A stretch of 64,000 nt of DNA, from positions 868,001 through 932,000 of the forward strand of contig OY781061.1 of NCBI GenBank assembly GCA_963676515.1. Reading direction: 5' to 3'. Positions 26,281 to 52,238 of this stretch are shown here, in pieces (the stretch's first letter is position 1; each line of letters starts with the position of its first letter). The notes beneath the pieces are model-generated. The model did no database searches. It was not told the origin of the DNA and saw only the letters and a program-made list of their open reading frames with translations. This DNA comes from G963667145 sp963676515 [NCBI: Candidatus Cloacimonadota bacterium] (GTDB lineage: Bacteria > Cloacimonadota > Cloacimonadia > G963667145). Both the position numbers and the translations under genes were made by a program.

Positions 26281-26941
26281 GCTAGCAAATACTTAAAGCA
26301 GGAAGCGTGAAATTCGTTAACCGCCTGAGCTACGCTAACGACGAAGTGCTATATCACCTATAAAAGACAAAATGAGATTCATAGCACGAGGCTGACAGCG
26401 TGCGATGAAGGTTTAGAATTTAGCTTACAGCTTTGGTATTTTGATTTTACCTTTTGTTACTTTTCGCTTTGGTCAACCAAAGGGAAAAGTAAGACCCTCC
26501 GTCAGGAGACCAAAGCTGGGAGACAGTAACCACAGATGGGTACAGATGACTGCTGGTTGTGGCATTTCCAAGCTGAAGCTTGGGAACGAGGGGAAATCAC
26601 TCTGATAAGAGAGGATGCCCGCTTTTTAGCTTTCAGCTGGACTCCATCTTTTCTTTGAACGCTCAACGAAAAGATAGAGGAGAAAAGAAAACCGCTCCGC
26701 TTCAATCCGCCAGAGGGTTGCGTGAGGTGTTTACGGAGTTCCGTGGTGAAGAGCACCTCCGAGATTTGTTCTTAGCTATCCATTTTCAATTGCTGGCTTT
26801 GCAATGCCAAAAATGGTGGTCTGTGTCTCTGGCTCTGCCCGTGAAGCGGAGAAATTCCCCATCCTACCTAGCAGGTAAGACCGCCCTTCCCTGCCCCTTT
26901 TGTGCATCGTGTGGGAGAATCCAGAGGCGGGTTAGGGTTGG
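26281..26941. repeat. 661-bp tandem unit, copy 1
   Basis: First copy of a unit beginning gctaRcaaatacttaaag. In order it holds: a hairpin-prone segment around cgttaaccgcc; a 36-bp near-perfect inverted repeat at 26457-26492 (17-bp arms TTACTTTTCGCTTTGGT, one mismatch, CA loop); a palindrome of the type TTCCCAAGCT-GA-AGCTTGGGAA at 26565-26586; then a half beginning ctctgataagagagg and ending ccagaggcgggttagggttgg. The second half is of variant a (agagggttgcgtgagg). The short reading frames it contains (up to 125 codons) are not convincing genes. Confidence 0.85.
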
Positions 26942-27603
26942 GCTAACAAATACTTAAAGCAGGAAGCGTGAAATTCGTTAACCGCCTGAGCTACGCTAAC
27001 GACGAAGTGCTATATCACCTATAAAAGACAAAATGAGATTCATAGCACGAGGCTGAGCGCGTGCGATTAAGGTTTAGAATTTAGCTTACAGCTTTGGTAT
27101 TTTGATTTTACCTTTTGTTACTTTTCGCTTTGGTCAACCAAAGGGAAAAGTAAGACCCTCCGTCAGGAGACCAAAGCTGGGAGACAGTAACCACAGATGG
27201 GTACAGATGACTGCTGGTTGTGGCATTCCCAAGCTGAAGCTTGGGAACGAGGGGAAATCACTCTGATAAGAGAGGATGCCCGCTTTTTAGCTTTCAGCGG
27301 GACTCCATCTTTTCTTTGAACGCTCAACGAAAAGATAGAGGAGAAAAGAAAACCGCTCCGCTTCAATCCGCCAGAGACATGGCGTGAGGTGTTTACTGAA
27401 TTCCGTGGTGAAGAGCACCTCCGAGATTTGTTCTTAGCTATACATTTCCAATTGCTGGCATTTCAGTGCTATAGATAAAGGTCTGTGTCTCTGGCTCTGC
27501 CCGTGAAGCGGAGAAGTTCCCCATCCTAACTAGCAGGTAAGACCGCCCTTCCCTGCTCCTTTTGTGCATCGTGTGAGAGAATCCAGAGGCGGGTTAGGGT
27601 TGG
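26942..27603. repeat. 661-bp tandem unit, copy 2
   Basis: Same layout as copy 1. The long inverted repeat is at 27118-27153. The first half is the cacctataaaag variant and the second half is variant b (agagacatggcgtgagg). Confidence 0.85.
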
Positions 27604-28265
27604 GCTAACAAATACTTAAAGCAGGAAGCGTGAAATTCGTTAACCGCCTGAGCTACGCTAACGACGAAGTGCTATATCTCCTCTAAAATGACAAATGAGA
27701 TTCTTAGCACGAGGCTGAGCGCGTGCGATGAAGGTTTAGAATTTAGCTTACAGCTTTGGTATTTTGATTTTACCTTTTGTTACTTTTCGCTTTGGTCAAC
27801 CAAAGGGAAAAGTAAGACCCTCCGTCAGGAGACCAAAGCTGGGAGACAGTAACCACAGATGGGTACAGATGACTGCTGGTTGTGGCATTCCCAAGCTGGA
27901 GCTTGGGAACGAGGGGAAATCACTCTGATAAGAGAGGATGCCCGCTTTTTAGCTTTCAGCGGGACTCCATCTTTTCTTTGAACGCTCAACGAAAAGATAG
28001 AGGAGAAAAGAAAACCGCTCCGCTTCAATCCGCCAGAGACATGGCGTGAGGTGTTTACTGAATTCTGTGGTGAAGAGCACCTCCGAGATTTGTTCTTAGC
28101 TATACATTTCCAATTGCTGGCATTTCAGTGCTATAGATAAAGGTCTGTGTCTCTGGCTCTGCCCGTGAAGCGGAGAAATTCCCCATCCTAACTAGCAGGT
28201 AAGACCGCCCTTCCCTGCTCCTTTTGTGCATCGTGTGAGAGAATCCAGAGGCGGGTTAGGGTTGG
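27604..28265. repeat. 661-bp tandem unit, copy 3
   Basis: Long inverted repeat at 27780-27815. The first half carries the tcctctaaaatgac variant and the second half is variant b, very similar to copy 5. Confidence 0.85.
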
Positions 28266-29048
28266 GCTAACAAATACTTAAAGCAGGAAGCGTGAAATTC
28301 GTTAACCGCCTGAGCTACGCTAACGACGAAGTGCTATATCTCCTCTAAAATGACAAATGAGATTCTTAGCACGAGGCTGAGCGCGTGCGATGAAGGTTTA
28401 GAATTTAGCTTACAGCTTTGGTATTTTGATTTTACCTTTTGTTACTTTTCGCTTTGGTCAACCAAAGGGAAAAGTAAGACCCTCCGTCAGGAGACCAAAG
28501 CTGGGAGACAGTAACCACAGATGGGTACAGATGACTGCTGGTTGTGGCATTCCCAAGCTGGAGCTTGGGAACGAGGGTAAAAGAGGATGCTCGCTTTTTA
28601 GCCTTCAGCTGGACTCCATCTTTTCTTTGAACGCTCAACGAAAAGATAGAGGAGAAAAGAAAACCGCTCCGCTTCAATCCGCCAGAGGGTTGCGTGAGGT
28701 GTTTACGGAGTTCCGTGGTGGAGAACACCTCCGAGATTTATTCTTAGCTATCCATTTTTAATTGTTGGCATTGCAGTGCCATAGATAAAGGTCTGTGTCT
28801 CTGGCTCTGCCCGTGAAGCGGAGAGAGTCCCCATCCTACCTAGCAGGCAAGACCGCCCTTCCCTGCCCCTTTTGTGCATCGTGTGAGAGAATGGATTCCC
28901 GCTTCCGCGGGAATGAGGGCTGGTGGCGATGCGAAGCTGGTGGTGAATAAACATACTGGCTGATAAGGCACAAGGCGTGCGGTGTGCTTCCTTGCCTTGC
29001 TTACCTCATTCCCGCGGAAGCGGGAATCCAGAGGCGGGTTAGGGTTGG
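28266..29048. repeat. 661-bp tandem unit, copy 4, with nested insertion
   Basis: Long inverted repeat at 28442-28477. The first half has the tcctctaaaatgac variant and the second half is variant a. About 13 bases are missing after the CCCAAGCTGG palindrome (gagggtaaaagagg instead of the longer form in siblings). A 135-bp element is inserted near the end (28893-29027), which accounts for the longer spacing of 783 bases. Confidence 0.85.
28893..29027. mobile_element. 135-bp nested element bounded by dRS3-like 20-mers
   Basis: The element lies between agagaat and ccagagg. Copies 2, 3 and 5 have the uninterrupted sequence agagaatccagagg at this point, so they preserve the empty site. Its ends are attcccgcttccgcgggaat (28895-28914) and attcccgcggaagcgggaat (29008-29027), each an inverted repeat in itself. 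It encodes no transposase, so a MITE-like or recombinase-mobilised element is inferred. A related, longer version occurs at 31819-31977. Confidence 0.7.
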
Positions 29049-29710
29049 GCTAACAAATACTTAAAGCGGGAAGCGTGAAATTCGTTAACCGCCTGAGCTA
29101 CGCTGACGACGAAGTGCTATATCACCTCTAAAATGACAAATGAGATTCATAGCACGAGGCTGAGCGCGTGCGAGGAAGGTTTAGAATTTAGCTTACAGCT
29201 TTGGTATTTTGACTTTACCTTTTGTTACTTTTCGCTTTGGTCAACCAAAGGGAAAAGTAAGACCCTCCGTCAGGAGACCAAAGCTGTGAGACAGTAACCA
29301 CAGATGGGTACAGATGACTGCTGGTTGTGGCATTCCTAAGCTGAAGCTTGGGAACGAGGGGAAATCACTCTGATAAGAGAGGATGCCCGCTTTTTAGCTT
29401 TCAGCGGGACTCCATCTTTTCTTTGAACGCTCAACGAAAAGATAGAGGAGAAAAGAAAACCGCTCCGCTTCAATCCGCCAGAGACATGGCGTGAGGTGTT
29501 TACTGAATTCTGTGGTGAAGAGCACCTCCGAGATTTGTTCTTAGCTATACATTTCCAATTGCTGGCATTTCAGTGCTATAGATAAAGGTCTGTGTCTCTG
29601 GCTCTGCCCGTGAAGCGGAGAAATTCCCCATCCTAACTAGCAGGTAAGACCGCCCTTCCCTGCTCCTTTTGTGCATCGTGTGAGAGAATCCAGAGGCGGG
29701 TTAGGGTTGG
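29049..29710. repeat. 661-bp tandem unit, copy 5
   Basis: Long inverted repeat at 29225-29260. The first half is the cacctctaaaatgac variant and the second half is variant b, almost the same as copy 3. Confidence 0.85.
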
Positions 29711-30021
29711 GCTAACAAATACTTAAAGCAGGAAGCGTGAAATTCGTTAACCGCCTGAGCTACGCTAACGACGAAGTGCTATATCTCCTCTAAAATGACA
29801 AATGAGATTCTTAGCACGAGGCTGAGCGCGTGCGATGAAGGTTTAGAATTTAGCTTACAGCTTTGGTATTTTGATTTTACCTTTTGTTACTTTTCGCTTT
29901 GGTCAACCAAAGGGAAAAGTAAGACCCTCCGTCAGGAGACCAAAGCTGTGAGACAGTAACCACAGATGGGTACAGATGACTGCTGGTTGTGGCATTCCCA
30001 AGCTGGAGCTTGGGAACGAGG
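29711..30021. repeat. 661-bp unit, copy 6, first half only (split by the Fic locus)
   Basis: Homology to the other copies runs through the long inverted repeat (29887-29922) and the palindrome TTCCCAAGCT-GG-AGCTTGGGAA (29995-30016), then stops at gaacgagg. The matching second half resumes at 31523, after the Fic gene. Confidence 0.8.
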
Positions 30022-30117
30022 ACACAGACGCCATAAATGGCGTCTCTACCTTCACACCACTTGCTTTGTGTTACCATCCAGCCCTCATCCTCGCGAAAGC
30101 GGGGATCCAGAGGCGGG
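29992..30117. repeat. 126-bp direct repeat, left copy flanking the Fic segment
   Basis: Contains the CCCAAGCT palindrome, a second perfect palindrome (agacgccataaatggcgtct, 30026-30045) and a dRS3-like 20-mer (30087-30106). It matches 32342-32467 with two differences by my reading. Confidence 0.8.
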
Positions 30118-30153
30118 TTCGGTTGGGCTTCCGCTTTGCCCTTGTCCTTTTTA

Positions 30154-31522: not shown

Positions 31523-31993
31523 AAATCCCTCTGATAAGAGAGGATGCCCGCTTTTTAGCTTTCAGCTGGACTCCATCTTTTCTTTGAACGCTCAACGAAA
31601 AGATAGAGGAGAAAAGAAAACCGCTCCGCTTCAATCCGCCAGAGGGTTGCGTGAGGTGTTTACGGAGTTCCGTGGTGGAGAGCACCTCCGAGATTTGTTC
31701 TTAGCTGTGCATTTCCGATTGCTGGCATTGCAGTGCCAAAGATGGTGGTCTGTGTCTCTGGCTCTGCCCGTGAAGCGGAGGTGAGCCCCTGCCCATTGAT
31801 AGCATCGTGTGGGAGAATGGATTCCCGCTTTCGCGGGAATGAGGGAGGGTGGCGATGCGGAGCTGGTGGTGAATAAACATACTGGCTGATGAAGGCACAA
31901 GGCGTGCGGTGTGCAGGAATGGGGACTGGTGGTGTGCTTTCTTGCCTTGCTTCCATCATCCTCGCGAAAGCGGGGATCCAAGGGCGGGGTTGG
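31523..31993. repeat. 661-bp unit, second half (continuation of the split copy)
   Basis: Begins at aaatccctctgataagagagg only about 20 bases after the Fic stop and continues as variant a. It carries its own nested dRS3-bounded element (31819-31977). The frames that cross it are repeat-derived and not genes. Confidence 0.8.
31819..31977. mobile_element. 159-bp nested element bounded by dRS3-like 20-mers
   Basis: Same position within the unit and same internal sequence as the element at 28893-29027, with an extra stretch (around ggaatggggactgg). Left end attcccgctttcgcgggaat (31821-31840), right end atcctcgcgaaagcggggat (31958-31977). Non-coding. Confidence 0.65.
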
Positions 31994-32296
31994 GCTAATA
32001 AATACTTAAAGCAGGAAGCGTTAAATTCGTTGACCGCCTGAGCTACGCTAACGACGAAGTGCTATATCACCTATAAAAGACAAAATGAGATTCATAGCAC
32101 GAGGTTGAGCGCGTGCGATGAAGGTTTAGAATTTAGCTTACAGCTTTGGTATTTTGATTTTACCTTTTGTTACTTTTCGCTTTGGTCAACCAAAGGGAAA
32201 AGTAAGACCCTCCGTCAGGAGACCAAAGCTGGGAGACAGTAACCACAGATGGGTACAGATGACTGCTGGTTGTGGCATTCCTAAGCTGAAGCTTGA
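31994..32296. repeat. 661-bp unit, copy 7, first half only
   Basis: Starts gctaataaatacttaaag, contains the long inverted repeat at 32170-32205 and breaks off inside the CCTAAGCTGAAGCTTG palindrome. A short A+T-rich stretch (32297-32341) then leads to the right 126-bp repeat. Confidence 0.8.
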
Positions 32297-32341
32297 GGGT
32301 GTATATGTTTTAATTAATTGACTGTATGTTTTATTTCGTAT

Positions 32342-32467
32342 GCATTCCCAAGCTGGAGCTTGGGAACGAGGACACAGACGCCATAAATGGCGTCTCTACC
32401 TTCACACCACTTGCTTTGTGTTACCATCCAGCCCTCATCCTCGCGAAAGCGGGAATCCACAGGCGGG
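32342..32467. repeat. 126-bp direct repeat, right copy flanking the Fic segment
   Basis: Matches 29992-30117 with two differences. Carries the CCCAAGCT palindrome (32345-32366), the agacgccat palindrome (32376-32395) and a dRS3-like 20-mer (32437-32456). The two copies are 2.35 kb apart and bracket the Fic gene plus two half units. Confidence 0.8.
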
Positions 32468-46470: not shown

Positions 46471-46830
46471 ATGAAAAAACTAGGATTATTATTTTTAGTG
46501 ATTGTTTGGATTACTATAGCCTTAGCTCAAGAATTTGTTAGTCCTATAGATTTTCTCAATACGGATGAAAATAAACAAAAAGTAGTAATATATATAAAGG
46601 AAAATGTAAAAGAAAGTTGTGCCAGTATTGGTATAACTGATCCTGCTACTCTGCGGATGATGGAAAATAAAAATTTAACATCATTTAAAAAGCTCATAAA
46701 AGCTACCGACCCAGAATTGCTGCAAGCATTAATTTGCCAATACAGTAGTATAGGATTGGATGATTATGCGACTATCTTGATGATGTATGACATGCAAATG
46801 AAAGCTAAAAAACAAGAATTGAAGTGGTAG
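46471..46830 (+). CDS. Small exported protein, function unknown
   Basis: The 119 residues begin with a classic signal peptide (MKKLGLLFLVIVWITIALA, likely cleaved after ALA before QEF). The mature part is helical, with two Cys (SCASIG and LICQYSS) that could form a disulfide in the periplasm. No family is recognised. gcaggaag precedes the ATG. It follows the other orphan by 17 bases and shares its A+T-rich composition, so the two probably form one unit, ended by the terminator at 46903-46928. Confidence 0.65.
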   Translation: MKKLGLLFLVIVWITIALAQEFVSPIDFLNTDENKQKVVIYIKENVKESCASIGITDPATLRMMENKNLTSFKKLIKATDPELLQALICQYSSIGLDDYATILMMYDMQMKAKKQELKW

Positions 46831-47735: not shown

Positions 47736-48482
47736 TTATTTTGTTAAGTTATTTTGTATAGCGTATAATTTACCTTTTGCTGTAAGATACAACTCTTTTG
47801 TAAAAGGCTCTTGTTCAATTAATTTTTTTGCTGAAGCCTCCATGATTATGAAATCAATATAAATTCGAGAAACATCCATTTCTTTTATTATGTGGTTATA
47901 ACTGATATAATCACTCGTTCCTTTTTCGAACTCTTTTACTATTGCAGACATTAATTCAAGCACAGGGTCTTTTATTTTTTTTTCATATAACTTTGGCTTT
48001 CCACTTGAAAATGGGTTATTTCCTATCGGGGGCTTTTTTAATAGAGGACTTTGATGAATAGTGCGAATTAGTTCGTCAAAATTGTATTCGTAGTCTGCAT
48101 TTTTTGAAAAGTTAATATGAAGTTTTGTTTTGAGAAATGTTGGAATATCATTTGTTCCGCTTTGTCGAATTATAGGGATTATTTTTTTAGTATTTATGTT
48201 TTTAAGAAGATTTGAAGTAATAATCATTTTTTCGTAGCCAACTCCTCCTATGCCTTTATTTGCTTTTGATACATATGTTTTAGTGCAAACCATTAAAATT
48301 CTGTCAGCATTTGCTAAATGGGTTTCCATGAAATGTGACAAATCGTCTCCAGGCTGGATTTCCCATTGGTCTAAAATAGCATCAATTCCATTATTTCGTA
48401 ATCTACTGCCTAATTCATACACCCATTTCTTATGTTCTAAAGAATCGTGGGAATATGAAATAAAAACTTTTGGTATGCTCAT
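47736..48482 (-). CDS. SEFIR (TIR-like) domain protein
   Basis: The 248-residue protein starts KVFISYSHDSLEHKKWVYEL and continues with LRNNGIDAILDQWEIQPGDD, METHLANADRILMVCTKTYV and GGVGYEKMI, the order of box motifs of the SEFIR family (relatives of TIR domains). The C-terminal ~70 residues look like a winged-helix-type module. Bacterial TIR/SEFIR proteins act in several anti-phage systems, often by consuming NAD+ or making NAD-derived signals; activity here is inferred from family only. The gene has its own ggagag ribosome-binding site, 97 bases of A+T-rich leader, and is more A+T rich than radC and nadE on either side. Confidence 0.85.
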   Translation of the reverse strand: MSIPKVFISYSHDSLEHKKWVYELGSRLRNNGIDAILDQWEIQPGDDLSHFMETHLANADRILMVCTKTYVSKANKGIGGVGYEKMIITSNLLKNINTKKIIPIIRQSGTNDIPTFLKTKLHINFSKNADYEYNFDELIRTIHQSPLLKKPPIGNNPFSSGKPKLYEKKIKDPVLELMSAIVKEFEKGTSDYISYNHIIKEMDVSRIYIDFIIMEASAKKLIEQEPFTKELYLTAKGKLYAIQNNLTK

Positions 48483-50126: not shown

Positions 50127-50738
50127 ATGAAGATAGATTCTATTTTGTTGTGTGCAGGGCAATCGTCTCGTATGGGAGCGGATAAGGCTTTGTTGGAAGT
50201 CGCTGGTAAAAAAAGCATCGATTTGGTTTTGGAGAAGCTAAGGGCTTTTTCTAGCAGAGTGATTGTGGTTTTGGGTGATAATTATGAGATGGTAACTGAC
50301 TATCTGCAAGACAGATACAGCGGTTTTGCTTTCCCTGTAGCTAATCCTGATCACTTGGAGGGCGGGATGCTCTCGTCGGTGAAAAAGGGGTTTGCTTCCG
50401 TGCAATCTGGGCATATGGCGATGCTCAACCTCATTGACCAGCCTTTCGTGTTGCCGCAGAGCTATGATAAGATATTGCAATCGTATGTGCCGCCTGCACC
50501 TTTTTTGATCCCTGTGGGTCGTAAAGAGTCTCGCCCCAAGAAAGGTCATCCGATTTTATTTGCGGCAGATTTTGTGCCAAAAGTGCTTGGCGATGAGAGT
50601 GCAAAGACCTTTCGTGATGTGCTGTTGCCCTATTACAAAGATGCAATTTATGTGGATGTCTTAGATGTGGGAATTACAGAGAACTTGAACACGAAAGAGC
50701 TCTTTGCTGCGGCAAAAAAGCGAGTGGAGCAAGATTAA
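50127..50738 (+). CDS. MobA-like nucleotidyltransferase
   Basis: The 203 residues begin with the MobA/MocA sugar- or cofactor-nucleotide transferase signature SILLCAGQSSRMGADKALLEVAG and later keep LIDQPFVLP and GRKESRPKKGHPILF. Such enzymes attach CMP or GMP to molybdopterin, or act on other phosphorylated substrates. The start at 50127 follows ggag at a suitable distance, while a GTG-type start 12 bases earlier would cover that site. No other molybdenum cofactor gene is visible, so the substrate is open. The sigma-54-like gene begins 12 bases later. Confidence 0.75.
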   Translation: MKIDSILLCAGQSSRMGADKALLEVAGKKSIDLVLEKLRAFSSRVIVVLGDNYEMVTDYLQDRYSGFAFPVANPDHLEGGMLSSVKKGFASVQSGHMAMLNLIDQPFVLPQSYDKILQSYVPPAPFLIPVGRKESRPKKGHPILFAADFVPKVLGDESAKTFRDVLLPYYKDAIYVDVLDVGITENLNTKELFAAAKKRVEQD

Positions 50739-50750
50739 GTTGAGCCAAAG

Positions 50751-51449
50751 ATGAGCAAATCTCTGATAAATTTTGCAGATGTCTTTTTGGACAAAAAAGT
50801 GGGGCAATCTCCTCTATTTGTGAAGTTATACAAAATGGATTTGCGAGAGCTGAGCCTTTATCTCAAGCACGAAATAGCCTCGAATCCTCTGCTGAATCTG
50901 GAGAAAATCGAAAATTACGACTATCATCAGGAGCAGGCAGATTTGCTCTGGGACGGAAGAAATTGTGAAGTGAACAAGGTTTTTTTCCCGACTCTAACGA
51001 TGAAGCCAGAATATTTGCAATGTGAGGGAGATTTTTTTGCAAAGCAGAGAAAGAGGCTTCGTTTTTTGGAGAATATTTTGAGTTCTCGGGAGAATCTTTT
51101 GCAAAAAGTTGGGCAGTATCTGTGCCAGTATCAGTGGAAGTTTTGGCAAGAGAGTTTTTCGTTTAGTCCTTTGTCCGTGGAGAAGATGAGCTTTGATTTG
51201 CAGATTTCTAAAAATATTTGTTATGCTCTGCTTAAAAATAAGCAGATAAAGTTTGCAGATCAGAGTAAGTTTTTATCAGAATTTTTGGTTAAAGGGCAAG
51301 GTGAGCTGAGTTTAGTTGCTATCAAGCGGAAAGTGAAAGCGATGGTGGACTCGGGCGAGAATGACAGACAAATAGCTGAAAAATTACAAGCTTCGGGAGT
51401 GAAGATTAGCAGACGCACGGTGTGCAAGTATCGCCGTCAGCTCTCCTAG
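50751..51449 (+). CDS. Strongly shortened sigma-54 (RpoN) homologue
   Basis: The protein has 232 residues; standard sigma-54 has 450-500. The N-terminal activator-interacting region is recognisable at residues 19-50 (QSPLFVKLYKMDLRELSLYL then ASNPLL, like the usual ELxxxIxxxxxxNPLLE). After a short linker (51-95), a helical stretch with a helix-turn-helix-like segment follows (about 138-175), then the RpoN domain (190-232) ending in the RpoN box SRRTVCKYRR at 220-229 (consensus ARRTVAKYRE). Most of the core-binding region appears to be missing. The frame is intact and both ends are conserved. It may be a minimal sigma-54, an anti-sigma-like competitor, or a decaying gene. Confidence 0.75.
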   Translation: MSKSLINFADVFLDKKVGQSPLFVKLYKMDLRELSLYLKHEIASNPLLNLEKIENYDYHQEQADLLWDGRNCEVNKVFFPTLTMKPEYLQCEGDFFAKQRKRLRFLENILSSRENLLQKVGQYLCQYQWKFWQESFSFSPLSVEKMSFDLQISKNICYALLKNKQIKFADQSKFLSEFLVKGQGELSLVAIKRKVKAMVDSGENDRQIAEKLQASGVKISRRTVCKYRRQLS

Positions 51450-51551: not shown

Positions 51552-52238
51552 ATGGAAACTAATGAAGGGAAAAGTAAAGTGTATTTAACCCCCTGGGTTG
51601 GGGAAAACTATGGAAAAGAATCATCAATTTTTCAGGAAAAGTTAATGGTTTTGACTGGTTCTCACTATGAAGCATTTGCAGATAAATGCAATGAAAATTA
51701 CGAAGAATATCTTAAAGGTAATCGAACTGAAGCAAGTGATTTTACTAATTCAATAGTAGAAATATATTTGGGACTTAGAAAAAGTGATTTAAAAAATGAC
51801 TGGGAGAAAACATATTCAAGTTTTATAAATGCAATTTTCAATAGAAACTCTTCAGAGAAAGAAAAGGGATTATTTTTTGATTCTATTGTTTTTTATACAT
51901 ATCTGCAAAGAATGGCGGGAAAGAATGCTAAGGAGGCTGAACTTTATAATTATAAATGCCAAGAGTATATTGATGCTTTTTTAGAAGTGATTAAGAAATA
52001 TAAGCCAGAAGTAATAATCTGCTGGGGTGCTAAAGTTAGAGAGGCCTTGCTTGGTAAGAAACAAGGATTGGTTGGAAATATAAGTATTGAAGAAGTAACG
52101 GTGAGGAAAAATCAAACAATTTGTACTTTAGAAATTGATGCAAGGAAAATAAAGTTGATTATGGTCAGACATCCTTCGCGTTGTTTTGGGAGAAAATCTA
52201 ATCATGAAATTTTTAAAAGATTTCTAACTTTCAAATAG
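51552..52238 (+). CDS. Uracil-DNA-glycosylase-superfamily-like protein
   Basis: The 228-residue protein resembles the UDG-like family whose members carry an N-terminal TPWVGENYG...LxxLxGSHY segment, a central VIICWGAKVREAL strand-helix and a C-terminal MVRHPSR motif. These correspond to the substrate-pocket, beta-strand and His-Pro-Ser motifs of uracil-DNA glycosylases. Proteins of this kind are mostly uncharacterised and often sit in accessory regions. An aaggag site 5 bases before the ATG is strong. The gene is A+T rich compared with mutS beside it. Enzyme activity is unproven. Confidence 0.6.
   Translation: METNEGKSKVYLTPWVGENYGKESSIFQEKLMVLTGSHYEAFADKCNENYEEYLKGNRTEASDFTNSIVEIYLGLRKSDLKNDWEKTYSSFINAIFNRNSSEKEKGLFFDSIVFYTYLQRMAGKNAKEAELYNYKCQEYIDAFLEVIKKYKPEVIICWGAKVREALLGKKQGLVGNISIEEVTVRKNQTICTLEIDARKIKLIMVRHPSRCFGRKSNHEIFKRFLTFK

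What the first reader, a model, noticed from the sequence alone, without database searches (positions are those of the whole stretch)
50751..51449. Mini sigma-54: both ends of RpoN kept, most of the core-binding region missing
A 232-residue protein retains the N-terminal NPLL region and a C-terminal RpoN box (SRRTVCKYRR). An intact frame with good ends argues for an in-frame reduction and not simple decay. It could be a minimal sigma factor, a competitor of full-length sigma-54 at -24 elements, or the only sigma-54 of a reduced system.
Basis: partly seen in the sequence, partly recalled or inferred. Interest (0 to 1): 0.65.

Follow-up and report, generated by a model that had tools for sequence, protein, structure and literature searches.

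The report
Sigma-54 relative missing its polymerase-binding part
In an uncultured bacterium, a shrunken relative of the gene switch sigma-54 keeps its DNA-recognition tip and part of its control region but has lost the part that grips RNA polymerase, so it probably binds DNA as a regulator instead of starting transcription.

Summary
Window 50751-51449 (+) is an intact 232-codon gene. It has a sigma-54 DNA-binding domain (PF04552, E 8.5e-16) ending in an RpoN box (SRRTVCKYRR) and the second half of the activator-interacting region (18.4 bits; best of 2000 shuffles 4.5). Roughly 200-230 residues, nearly the whole core-binding domain, are absent and not encoded elsewhere in the window. New: the helix-turn-helix motif is lost too (1 of 10 conserved positions kept), so it should not work as a normal sigma factor. 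The nearest sampled lineage is Cloacimonadota, whose rpoN lies in an lptB-rpoN-lpd cluster in the four loci read; this gene lies elsewhere. No relative of the same build was found in the collections searched, and no genome is held for the window, so whether a full-length rpoN coexists is unknown. Best reading (0.42): a diverged rpoN paralogue acting as a polymerase-free -24-type DNA-binding competitor, a natural counterpart of the engineered RpoN* roadblock. Re-purposing and decay remain rivals. In passing: core-binding-less sigma-54 DNA-binding domains fused to GIY-YIG domains, often beside signalling genes.

The parts
50751..51449 (+). CDS, 232 aa, core-binding-domain-less sigma-54 (RpoN) homologue
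   Evidence: intact ORF; PF04552 E 8.5e-16; codon log-odds 0.14 in frame against -0.18 to 0.02 in the five other frames
50820..50936 (+). second half of the activator-interacting domain (residues 24-62, ...YLKHEIASNPLLNLEK...)
   Evidence: profile match to model 26-64 of full-length RpoN; residues 1-70 score 18.4 bits against at most 4.5 in 2000 shuffles
50907..50966 (+). short linker (residues 53-72) standing where region II and nearly all of the core-binding domain lie in RpoN
   Evidence: the NPLL match ends and the TIGR02395 match starts at residue 73 = model position 247
50967..51020 (+). last strand segment of the core-binding domain (residues 73-90, VNKVFFPTLTMKPEY...)
   Evidence: TIGR02395 match starts at residue 73; aligned by MAFFT with the IINDFYFPRIRM segment of a Cloacimonadota RpoN
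51051..51155 (+). region aligned with the extra-long helix (about residues 101-135); R113 aligns with position 336 of the solved sigma-54 chain
   Evidence: phmmer alignment to 7qv9_M, residue read off by counting; 3 of 6 conserved positions kept
51207..51230 (+). degenerate HTH recognition motif (residues 153-160 SKNICYAL in place of NESTISRV and the like)
   Evidence: 1 of 10 conserved HTH positions kept
51408..51437 (+). RpoN box (residues 220-229, SRRTVCKYRR)
   Evidence: alignment to Cloacimonadota and solved sigma-54 sequences
50127..50738 (+). upstream gene, MobA/MocA-like nucleotidyltransferase; stop codon 12 bases before the start of the sigma-54 relative, so probably one transcript
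   Evidence: PF12804 E 3.6e-23; sequence

Best explanation
A strongly diverged paralogue (or relocated descendant) of rpoN that has lost RNA-polymerase binding and works as a free-standing DNA-binding regulator. Through its RpoN box it would dock on -24-type elements and, unable to recruit polymerase or engage the -12 element, would compete with full-length sigma-54 holoenzyme or block other transcription there: a natural counterpart of the engineered RpoN* roadblock. The kept part of the activator-interacting region may pack on the helix-turn-helix region or bind enhancer-binding proteins as a decoy. Shown: domain content, the deletion, the lost HTH motif, the kept RpoN box, the open frame. 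Inferred: DNA target, repression, presence of a full-length sigma-54.
For: Core-binding domain absent from the protein and from the window. RpoN box kept (SRRTVCKYRR) with 6 of 10 conserved positions of the RpoN domain, 3 of the other 4 being gaps, against 1 of 10 in the HTH. The aligned activator-interacting half keeps all five positions that are conserved there (read by me from the alignment and the consensus line; the tally printed itself counts this region as gap, because that alignment placed only the C-terminal segment) and beats 2000 of 2000 shuffles. Codon use over the whole frame is host-like, unlike the A+T-rich genes nearby. No stop codon in spite of ~22-32% identity to canonical genes: 0 of 1000 neutral simulations to 30% identity stayed open, mean 11.5 stops. 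Located outside the lptB-rpoN-lpd cluster of the four Cloacimonadota loci read. Precedent for the mechanism: the C-terminal 60 residues of Aquifex RpoN alone bind the -24 element (Kd ~109 nM) and, as RpoN*, lower transcription in P. aeruginosa (PMC5626770, passages read).
Against: No relative with this architecture was found, so conservation across species, the best sign of function, is missing. The DNA-binding-domain branch is extremely long (3.45 changes per column), which also fits relaxed selection. The domain deviates at several conserved positions besides the HTH. The codon signal is uneven: codons 1-60 score 0.32, codons 61-95 0.00, 96-180 -0.08 and 181-232 0.09. The window shows no activator motif and no site upstream of this operon that matches -24/-12 with up to two mismatches. 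Coexisting full-length rpoN not shown.
Confidence: 0.42

Rival explanations
1. A re-purposed DNA-binding protein: the sigma-54 C-terminal fold has been recruited for a target that has nothing to do with -24/-12 promoters (for example its own operon or a mobile element), with the N-terminal half kept only as a structural part.
For: HTH motif lost and very long branch. A separate family of core-binding-less sigma-54 DNA-binding domains exists, fused to GIY-YIG domains: 6 of 124 Cloacimonadota genomes and plasmids of Diaphorobacter and, more weakly, Arcobacter, which suggests that this domain is used outside polymerase.
Against: RpoN box close to consensus; the NPLL half of the activator region, useless for plain DNA binding, is kept.
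Confidence: 0.25
2. A relic: rpoN or a duplicate lost its core-binding domain by an in-frame deletion and is drifting, like the truncated rpoN of Neisseria.
For: Extreme divergence, lost HTH motif, codon signal near zero over residues 61-180, no relatives of the same build found. Truncated RpoN remnants are in print for Neisseria (PMC2784325 and PMC12316311, passages read).
Against: Frame open; whole-frame codon use host-like; neutral drift to this divergence gives 11.5 stops on average and 0 of 1000 open frames. The Neisseria remnant lacks the DNA-binding domain, whereas here the box is kept.
Confidence: 0.2
3. A minimal but working sigma factor: it contacts polymerase through the remaining elements and initiates from -24 promoters, perhaps as the only sigma-54 of the organism.
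For: Activator-interacting half, the region around R113 (aligned with position 336) and the RpoN box are kept.
Against: Core-binding domain gone; HTH motif gone; TIGR02395 score 74.8 against a cut-off of 277.35; position outside the lptB-rpoN-lpd cluster of the four kin loci read.
Confidence: 0.08
4. Assembly artefact: a collapsed or misjoined rpoN that is full-length in the real genome.
For: A metagenome-like source; canonical rpoN genes broken by a frame error (L181) or split into two frames with part of the core-binding region not accounted for (L182) were seen in other genomes.
Against: In the frame-broken case the core-binding codons are still there (L181); here they are absent from the window, the DNA-binding domain is itself far more diverged (3.45) than any of the 41 canonical rows of the tree (at most 1.0), and the neighbourhood is not that of the four rpoN loci read.
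Confidence: 0.05

Closest known systems
RpoN / sigma-54 (TIGR02395; Pfam PF00309, PF04963, PF04552)
   Same: Homologous activator-interacting half, last strand of the core-binding domain, extra-long-helix region and RpoN box, in the same order.
   Different: Core-binding domain absent, HTH recognition motif absent, 232 instead of ~470-520 aa, not in the lptB-rpoN-lpd cluster of the four loci read.
RpoN* molecular roadblock (engineered C-terminal 60 aa of Aquifex RpoN; PMC5626770, passages read)
   Same: RpoN-box DNA-binding end without the core-binding domain.
   Different: Engineered and only the last 60 residues; the window protein is natural, and keeps an HTH-region remnant and part of the activator-interacting domain. 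DNA binding is shown for RpoN*, not for this protein.
Truncated rpoN of Neisseria (PMC2784325, PMC12316311; passages read)
   Same: Naturally shortened rpoN.
   Different: The Neisseria remnant lacks the DNA-binding domain; here the core-binding domain is lost and the DNA-binding end kept.
Sigma-54-DBD/GIY-YIG proteins (L109-L114, L178, weakly L179), annotated in the plasmid records as 'GIY-YIG nuclease family protein'
   Same: Sigma-54 DNA-binding domain without a core-binding domain.
   Different: They carry a C-terminal GIY-YIG domain; 6 of the 7 compared keep SR in the HTH motif (the seventh, L179, is not aligned there); no activator-interacting match in the six from Cloacimonadota; in the tree 6 of 7 branch apart from the window protein, though one clade with it is not rejected (p-AU 0.15).

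Membership tests
RpoN / sigma-54 factor | DNA-binding domain with RpoN box | tested here: met
   PF04552 58.5 bits, cut-off 22.8; SRRTVCKYRR. The strict published box pattern is recalled and would differ at the C position.
RpoN / sigma-54 factor | Activator-interacting domain (region I) | tested here: inconclusive
   Second half present; Pfam score 12.8 under the cut-off 23.8; first ~23 residues not aligned.
RpoN / sigma-54 factor | Core-binding domain | tested here: not met
   No Pfam hit at E<=1; no convincing core-binding coding sequence in the window.
RpoN / sigma-54 factor | HTH signature (xSTxSR and the like) | tested here: not met
   SKNICYAL in its place; 1 of 10 conserved positions kept.
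RpoN / sigma-54 factor | Score over the equivalog cut-off of TIGR02395 | tested here: not met
   74.8 against 277.35 bits.
RpoN / sigma-54 factor | Binds core polymerase, needs AAA+ activator | not testable with these tools
   Biochemical; no GAFTGA-like motif in six frames of the window, which covers 64 kb only.
RpoN* type roadblock (works like) | Binds -24 DNA without polymerase and lowers transcription | not testable with these tools
   Only the RpoN box is shown.
Sigma-54-DBD + GIY-YIG proteins | C-terminal GIY-YIG domain | tested here: not met
   Protein ends three residues after the box; no PF01541 hit at E<=1.

The most novel reading that the evidence does not exclude
Bacteria use core-free sigma-54 derivatives as regulators: the window protein is a natural -24 roadblock and activator decoy, and the GIY-YIG-fused proteins, often beside signalling genes, are a second branch of the same strategy, a sigma-54 DNA reader uncoupled from RNA polymerase.
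Probability: 0.25. Interest if true: 0.75.

Novelty: new variant of a known kind. Interest (0 to 1): 0.5.

Why it matters
Sigma-54 is usually treated as an all-or-nothing polymerase subunit. A natural descendant that keeps the -24 reader and part of the activator handle but not the polymerase grip would show that sigma-54 promoters can be regulated by dedicated competitors, and would give a natural test of what the activator-interacting region does without polymerase. The GIY-YIG fusions found on the way suggest that the sigma-54 DNA reader has been uncoupled from polymerase more than once.

Tried and rejected
Frame error: rejected, the missing region is not found nearby in any frame. Foreign gene: disfavoured, whole-frame codon use is host-like in contrast to three A+T-rich genes nearby, although the signal comes mostly from the first 60 codons. 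Full-length relatives mistaken for minis: of five short canonical-looking frames fetched, two were read. L181 is a canonical rpoN broken by a frame error and L182 a canonical rpoN split into two overlapping frames with part of the core-binding region not accounted for; L180, L183 and L184 were not read. The best outside hit (G213, E 1.6e-16) is by my reading a full-length gene with its core-binding region.

Led nowhere: genome contigs and viral-contig scans with the protein (33 and 3 stretches matched a pattern, none a relative); viral scan with the GIY-YIG alignment (234 stretches, none a relative); phages by tblastn (no match); plasmids with the protein (34 records, none with a place covering 80% of the query; of the ten listed, at about 25% identity, seven carry a sigma-54 annotation and three none); Rfam and tRNA scans of the window (nothing); structure prediction from the single sequence (pLDDT 45.5; too poor to use, no fold search made). 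A global MAFFT alignment put the N-terminus against the core-binding region; the local profile alignment was used instead. -24/-12-like sites with up to two mismatches: 64 in the window, 34 expected by shuffling and at most 50 in 100 shuffles, 25.5 mean and 59 maximum in 200 permuted patterns. That is an excess, but 58 of the 64 touch genes; the 6 intergenic ones against a mean of 2.4 (39 of 200 permutations as high) are not significant, and the looser GG-N10-GC pattern is not enriched (393 against 399). With one mismatch there are 7 sites against a mean of 1.7 (4 of 200 as high), 2 of them intergenic against 0.11 (4 of 200 as high): one lies between two gene ends, the other 206 bases upstream of the serS start.

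Full report
What is there. Window 50751-51449 (+) encodes an intact 232-aa protein. It starts 12 bases after the stop codon of a MobA/MocA-like nucleotidyltransferase gene (50127-50738), so the two are probably co-transcribed. Downstream lie a weakly UDG-like gene (51552-52238) and, on the other strand, mutS.

Domain anatomy. Pfam finds the sigma-54 DNA-binding domain at 95-231 (E 8.5e-16), a sub-threshold activator-interacting domain at 25-49 (E 0.11) and no core-binding domain. TIGR02395 matches residues 73-231 to model 247-425 of 434. A profile made from 39 full-length RpoN proteins (35 from the Cloacimonadota searches, 4 from other phyla) matches residues 24-62 to model 26-64 and 105-231 to 334-472. 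The N-terminal match is real: residues 1-70 score 18.4 bits, the best of 2000 shuffles 4.5. A Cloacimonadota RpoN (481 aa, L145) has TYLKHELVNNPMLEL where the window protein has LYLKHEIASNPLLNL. Between the NPLL part and residue 73 only about 20 residues remain where full-length proteins have some 200-230 (estimated from the model positions). Canonical core-binding segments find nothing convincing in the window (best E 0.042 at an unrelated place), so this is a deletion and not a frame error.

What is kept and what is lost. In the C-terminal part 3 of 6 conserved positions of the extra-long-helix region are kept, 1 of 10 in the HTH, 2 of 4 in the linker and 6 of 10 in the RpoN domain, where 3 of the other 4 are gaps (segment limits set by me). 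The motif written NESTISRV, DVSTICRV and the like in the 39 full-length proteins is SKNICYAL here, while the RpoN box is SRRTVCKYRR. In the aligned half of the activator-interacting region all five conserved positions are kept; three conserved positions further upstream are not aligned (my reading of the alignment and the consensus line; the tally printed counts this region as gap because its alignment placed only the C-terminal segment). R113 aligns with position 336 of the solved sigma-54 chain 7qv9_M (by counting); that changes at R336 bypass the need for an activator is recalled, not looked up.

Is it a living gene? Its codon use over the whole frame fits the window's genes (log-odds 0.14; the 15 housekeeping genes from which the table was made 0.11-0.30; its other five frames -0.18 to 0.02; three A+T-rich genes -0.16 to -0.31). 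The signal is uneven, 0.32 over the first 60 codons, 0.00 over codons 61-95, -0.08 over 96-180 and 0.09 over the rest, which speaks less clearly for the DNA-binding part. Neutral drift of a canonical gene to 30% identity left an open frame in 0 of 1000 simulations, with 11.5 stops on average (substitutions only, a simple model). Yet the branch in a tree of 49 DNA-binding domains is 3.45 changes per column against 1.13 for the same organism's MutS in its own tree, so the constraint on this gene has probably changed.

Whose gene? No whole genome is held. In a tree of 91 rows the window's MutS stands beside the 12 Cloacimonadota rows (SH-aLRT 100, long branch). The SPOR-like gene next to mutS (name by my reading) has counterparts at mutS in 11 of the 12 Cloacimonadota mutS loci examined. 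In a wider set of 289 genomes, the 89 matches at E <= 1e-250 all carry handles of that phylum. Fibrobacterota and other phyla could not be addressed by name and may be missing.

Relatives. Of 124 Cloacimonadota genomes 117 have PF04552 matches at E <= 0.01, mostly in frames of 470-545 aa; in two of the 117 (G076, G104) the only match is of the GIY-YIG type told below. In the four loci read, rpoN stands between lptB-like and lpd-like genes (names by my reading of the sequences). In ten rpoN loci fetched (L145-L154) no other protein of this window, of 29 tried, has a match at E <= 1e-5. The window protein finds canonical genes at about 22-32% identity: 106 of 124 genomes at E <= 0.01, best 1.5e-8. 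Of 386 genomes searched more widely 31 match at E <= 1e-7, the eight best in frames of 424-506 aa; the best of these was opened and is full-length by my reading. No second protein of the window's type was found in genome contigs by peptide patterns, viral contigs, phages or plasmids. Metagenome contigs could not be scanned.

An unexpected parallel. Six of the 124 Cloacimonadota genomes hold proteins of 334 (cut by the contig end) to 390 aa with a sigma-54 DNA-binding domain, no core-binding domain and a C-terminal GIY-YIG domain (five scanned: over Pfam's GIY-YIG cut-off in one, below it in four), next to, in several cases overlapping by four bases, what look like response-regulator or PAS-like kinase genes (my reading). 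Of 290 further genomes 6 match the alignment of these proteins at E <= 1e-20, some by partial matches or with a stop inside; these were not opened. On plasmids 6 records match one of them: Diaphorobacter and Sulfuricystis over 99% of its length, Arcobacter over 72%, these three annotated only as GIY-YIG nuclease family proteins, and three Bacteroidota records over its sigma-54 part. The Diaphorobacter and Arcobacter stretches were opened and lie beside or near EAL, histidine kinase or response-regulator genes. In Pfam the Diaphorobacter protein passes the cut-off for the sigma-54 domain but not for GIY-YIG, the Arcobacter protein the reverse. In the tree 6 of 7 branch apart from the window protein and the seventh (L179, 31% of columns filled) falls among canonical rows; a common clade with the window protein is not rejected (p-AU 0.15). 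Text searches for GIY-YIG with RpoN, sigma-54 or Cloacimon- listed two papers, neither of which seems to deal with it by title and start of abstract, all that I saw.

How it most likely works. Without the core-binding domain it should not make a normal holoenzyme, and without the HTH motif it should not handle the -12 element. The RpoN box end alone can bind -24 DNA: the C-terminal 60 residues of Aquifex RpoN bind with Kd ~109 nM and, expressed as the engineered RpoN*, lower transcription, also in cells without native RpoN (PMC5626770, passages read). I therefore favour a polymerase-free -24-type competitor. Its kept activator-interacting half is the feature that a plain DNA-binding protein would not need. 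Rivals are a re-purposed DNA-binding protein, a relic as in Neisseria (PMC2784325 and PMC12316311, passages read; there the DNA-binding domain is lost), a minimal sigma factor, and an assembly fault.

Limits. One sequence only; no genome; single-sequence structure prediction failed (pLDDT 45.5); the promoter scan is inconclusive. That no such natural core-free sigma-54 turned up in print rests on text searches of one open-access library, seen as listings, and is therefore a weak statement.

Noticed in passing
L109 2962-4134, L110 3540-4541, L111 4532-5581, L112 4206-5255, L113 1004-2089, L114 4367-5416; L178 4980-6188; L179 4719-5786: Proteins made of a sigma-54 DNA-binding domain plus a GIY-YIG domain, without a core-binding domain, beside or near what look like response-regulator, PAS/EAL or kinase genes in Cloacimonadota and on Diaphorobacter and Arcobacter plasmids; annotated in the plasmid records only as GIY-YIG nucleases. 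In some of them one of the two domains is below Pfam's cut-off.
   Followed up: partly
window 46471-46830, 47736-48482, 51552-52238: Three A+T-rich genes (GC3 0.24-0.28 against 0.47-0.64 in 15 housekeeping genes): a small protein that looks secreted, one that looks like a TIR-domain protein (both by eye) and a weakly UDG-like protein. They look recently acquired.
   Followed up: no
window about 26900-30150 and 31700-32450: Repeated intergenic DNA with units about 660 bases apart (for example GGTTAGGGTTGGGC at 26930, 27592, 28254, 29037, 29699) and a repeated palindrome TGGCACTGCAATGCCA at 28766 and 31723 (seen).
   Followed up: no
window 2-26164: An open frame of 8720 aa, cut by the window start, that looks like many repeated fibronectin-like modules followed by GLUG-like repeats (by eye).
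   Followed up: no
window 50736-50760: The sigma-54 relative starts 12 bases downstream of, and in the same frame as, the stop codon of the nucleotidyltransferase gene, so read-through of one TAA would fuse the two.
   Followed up: no
L182 1258-2405: A Cloacimonadota rpoN split into two overlapping frames (185 and 197 aa) with part of the core-binding region not accounted for; assembly fault or real split not decided.
   Followed up: no
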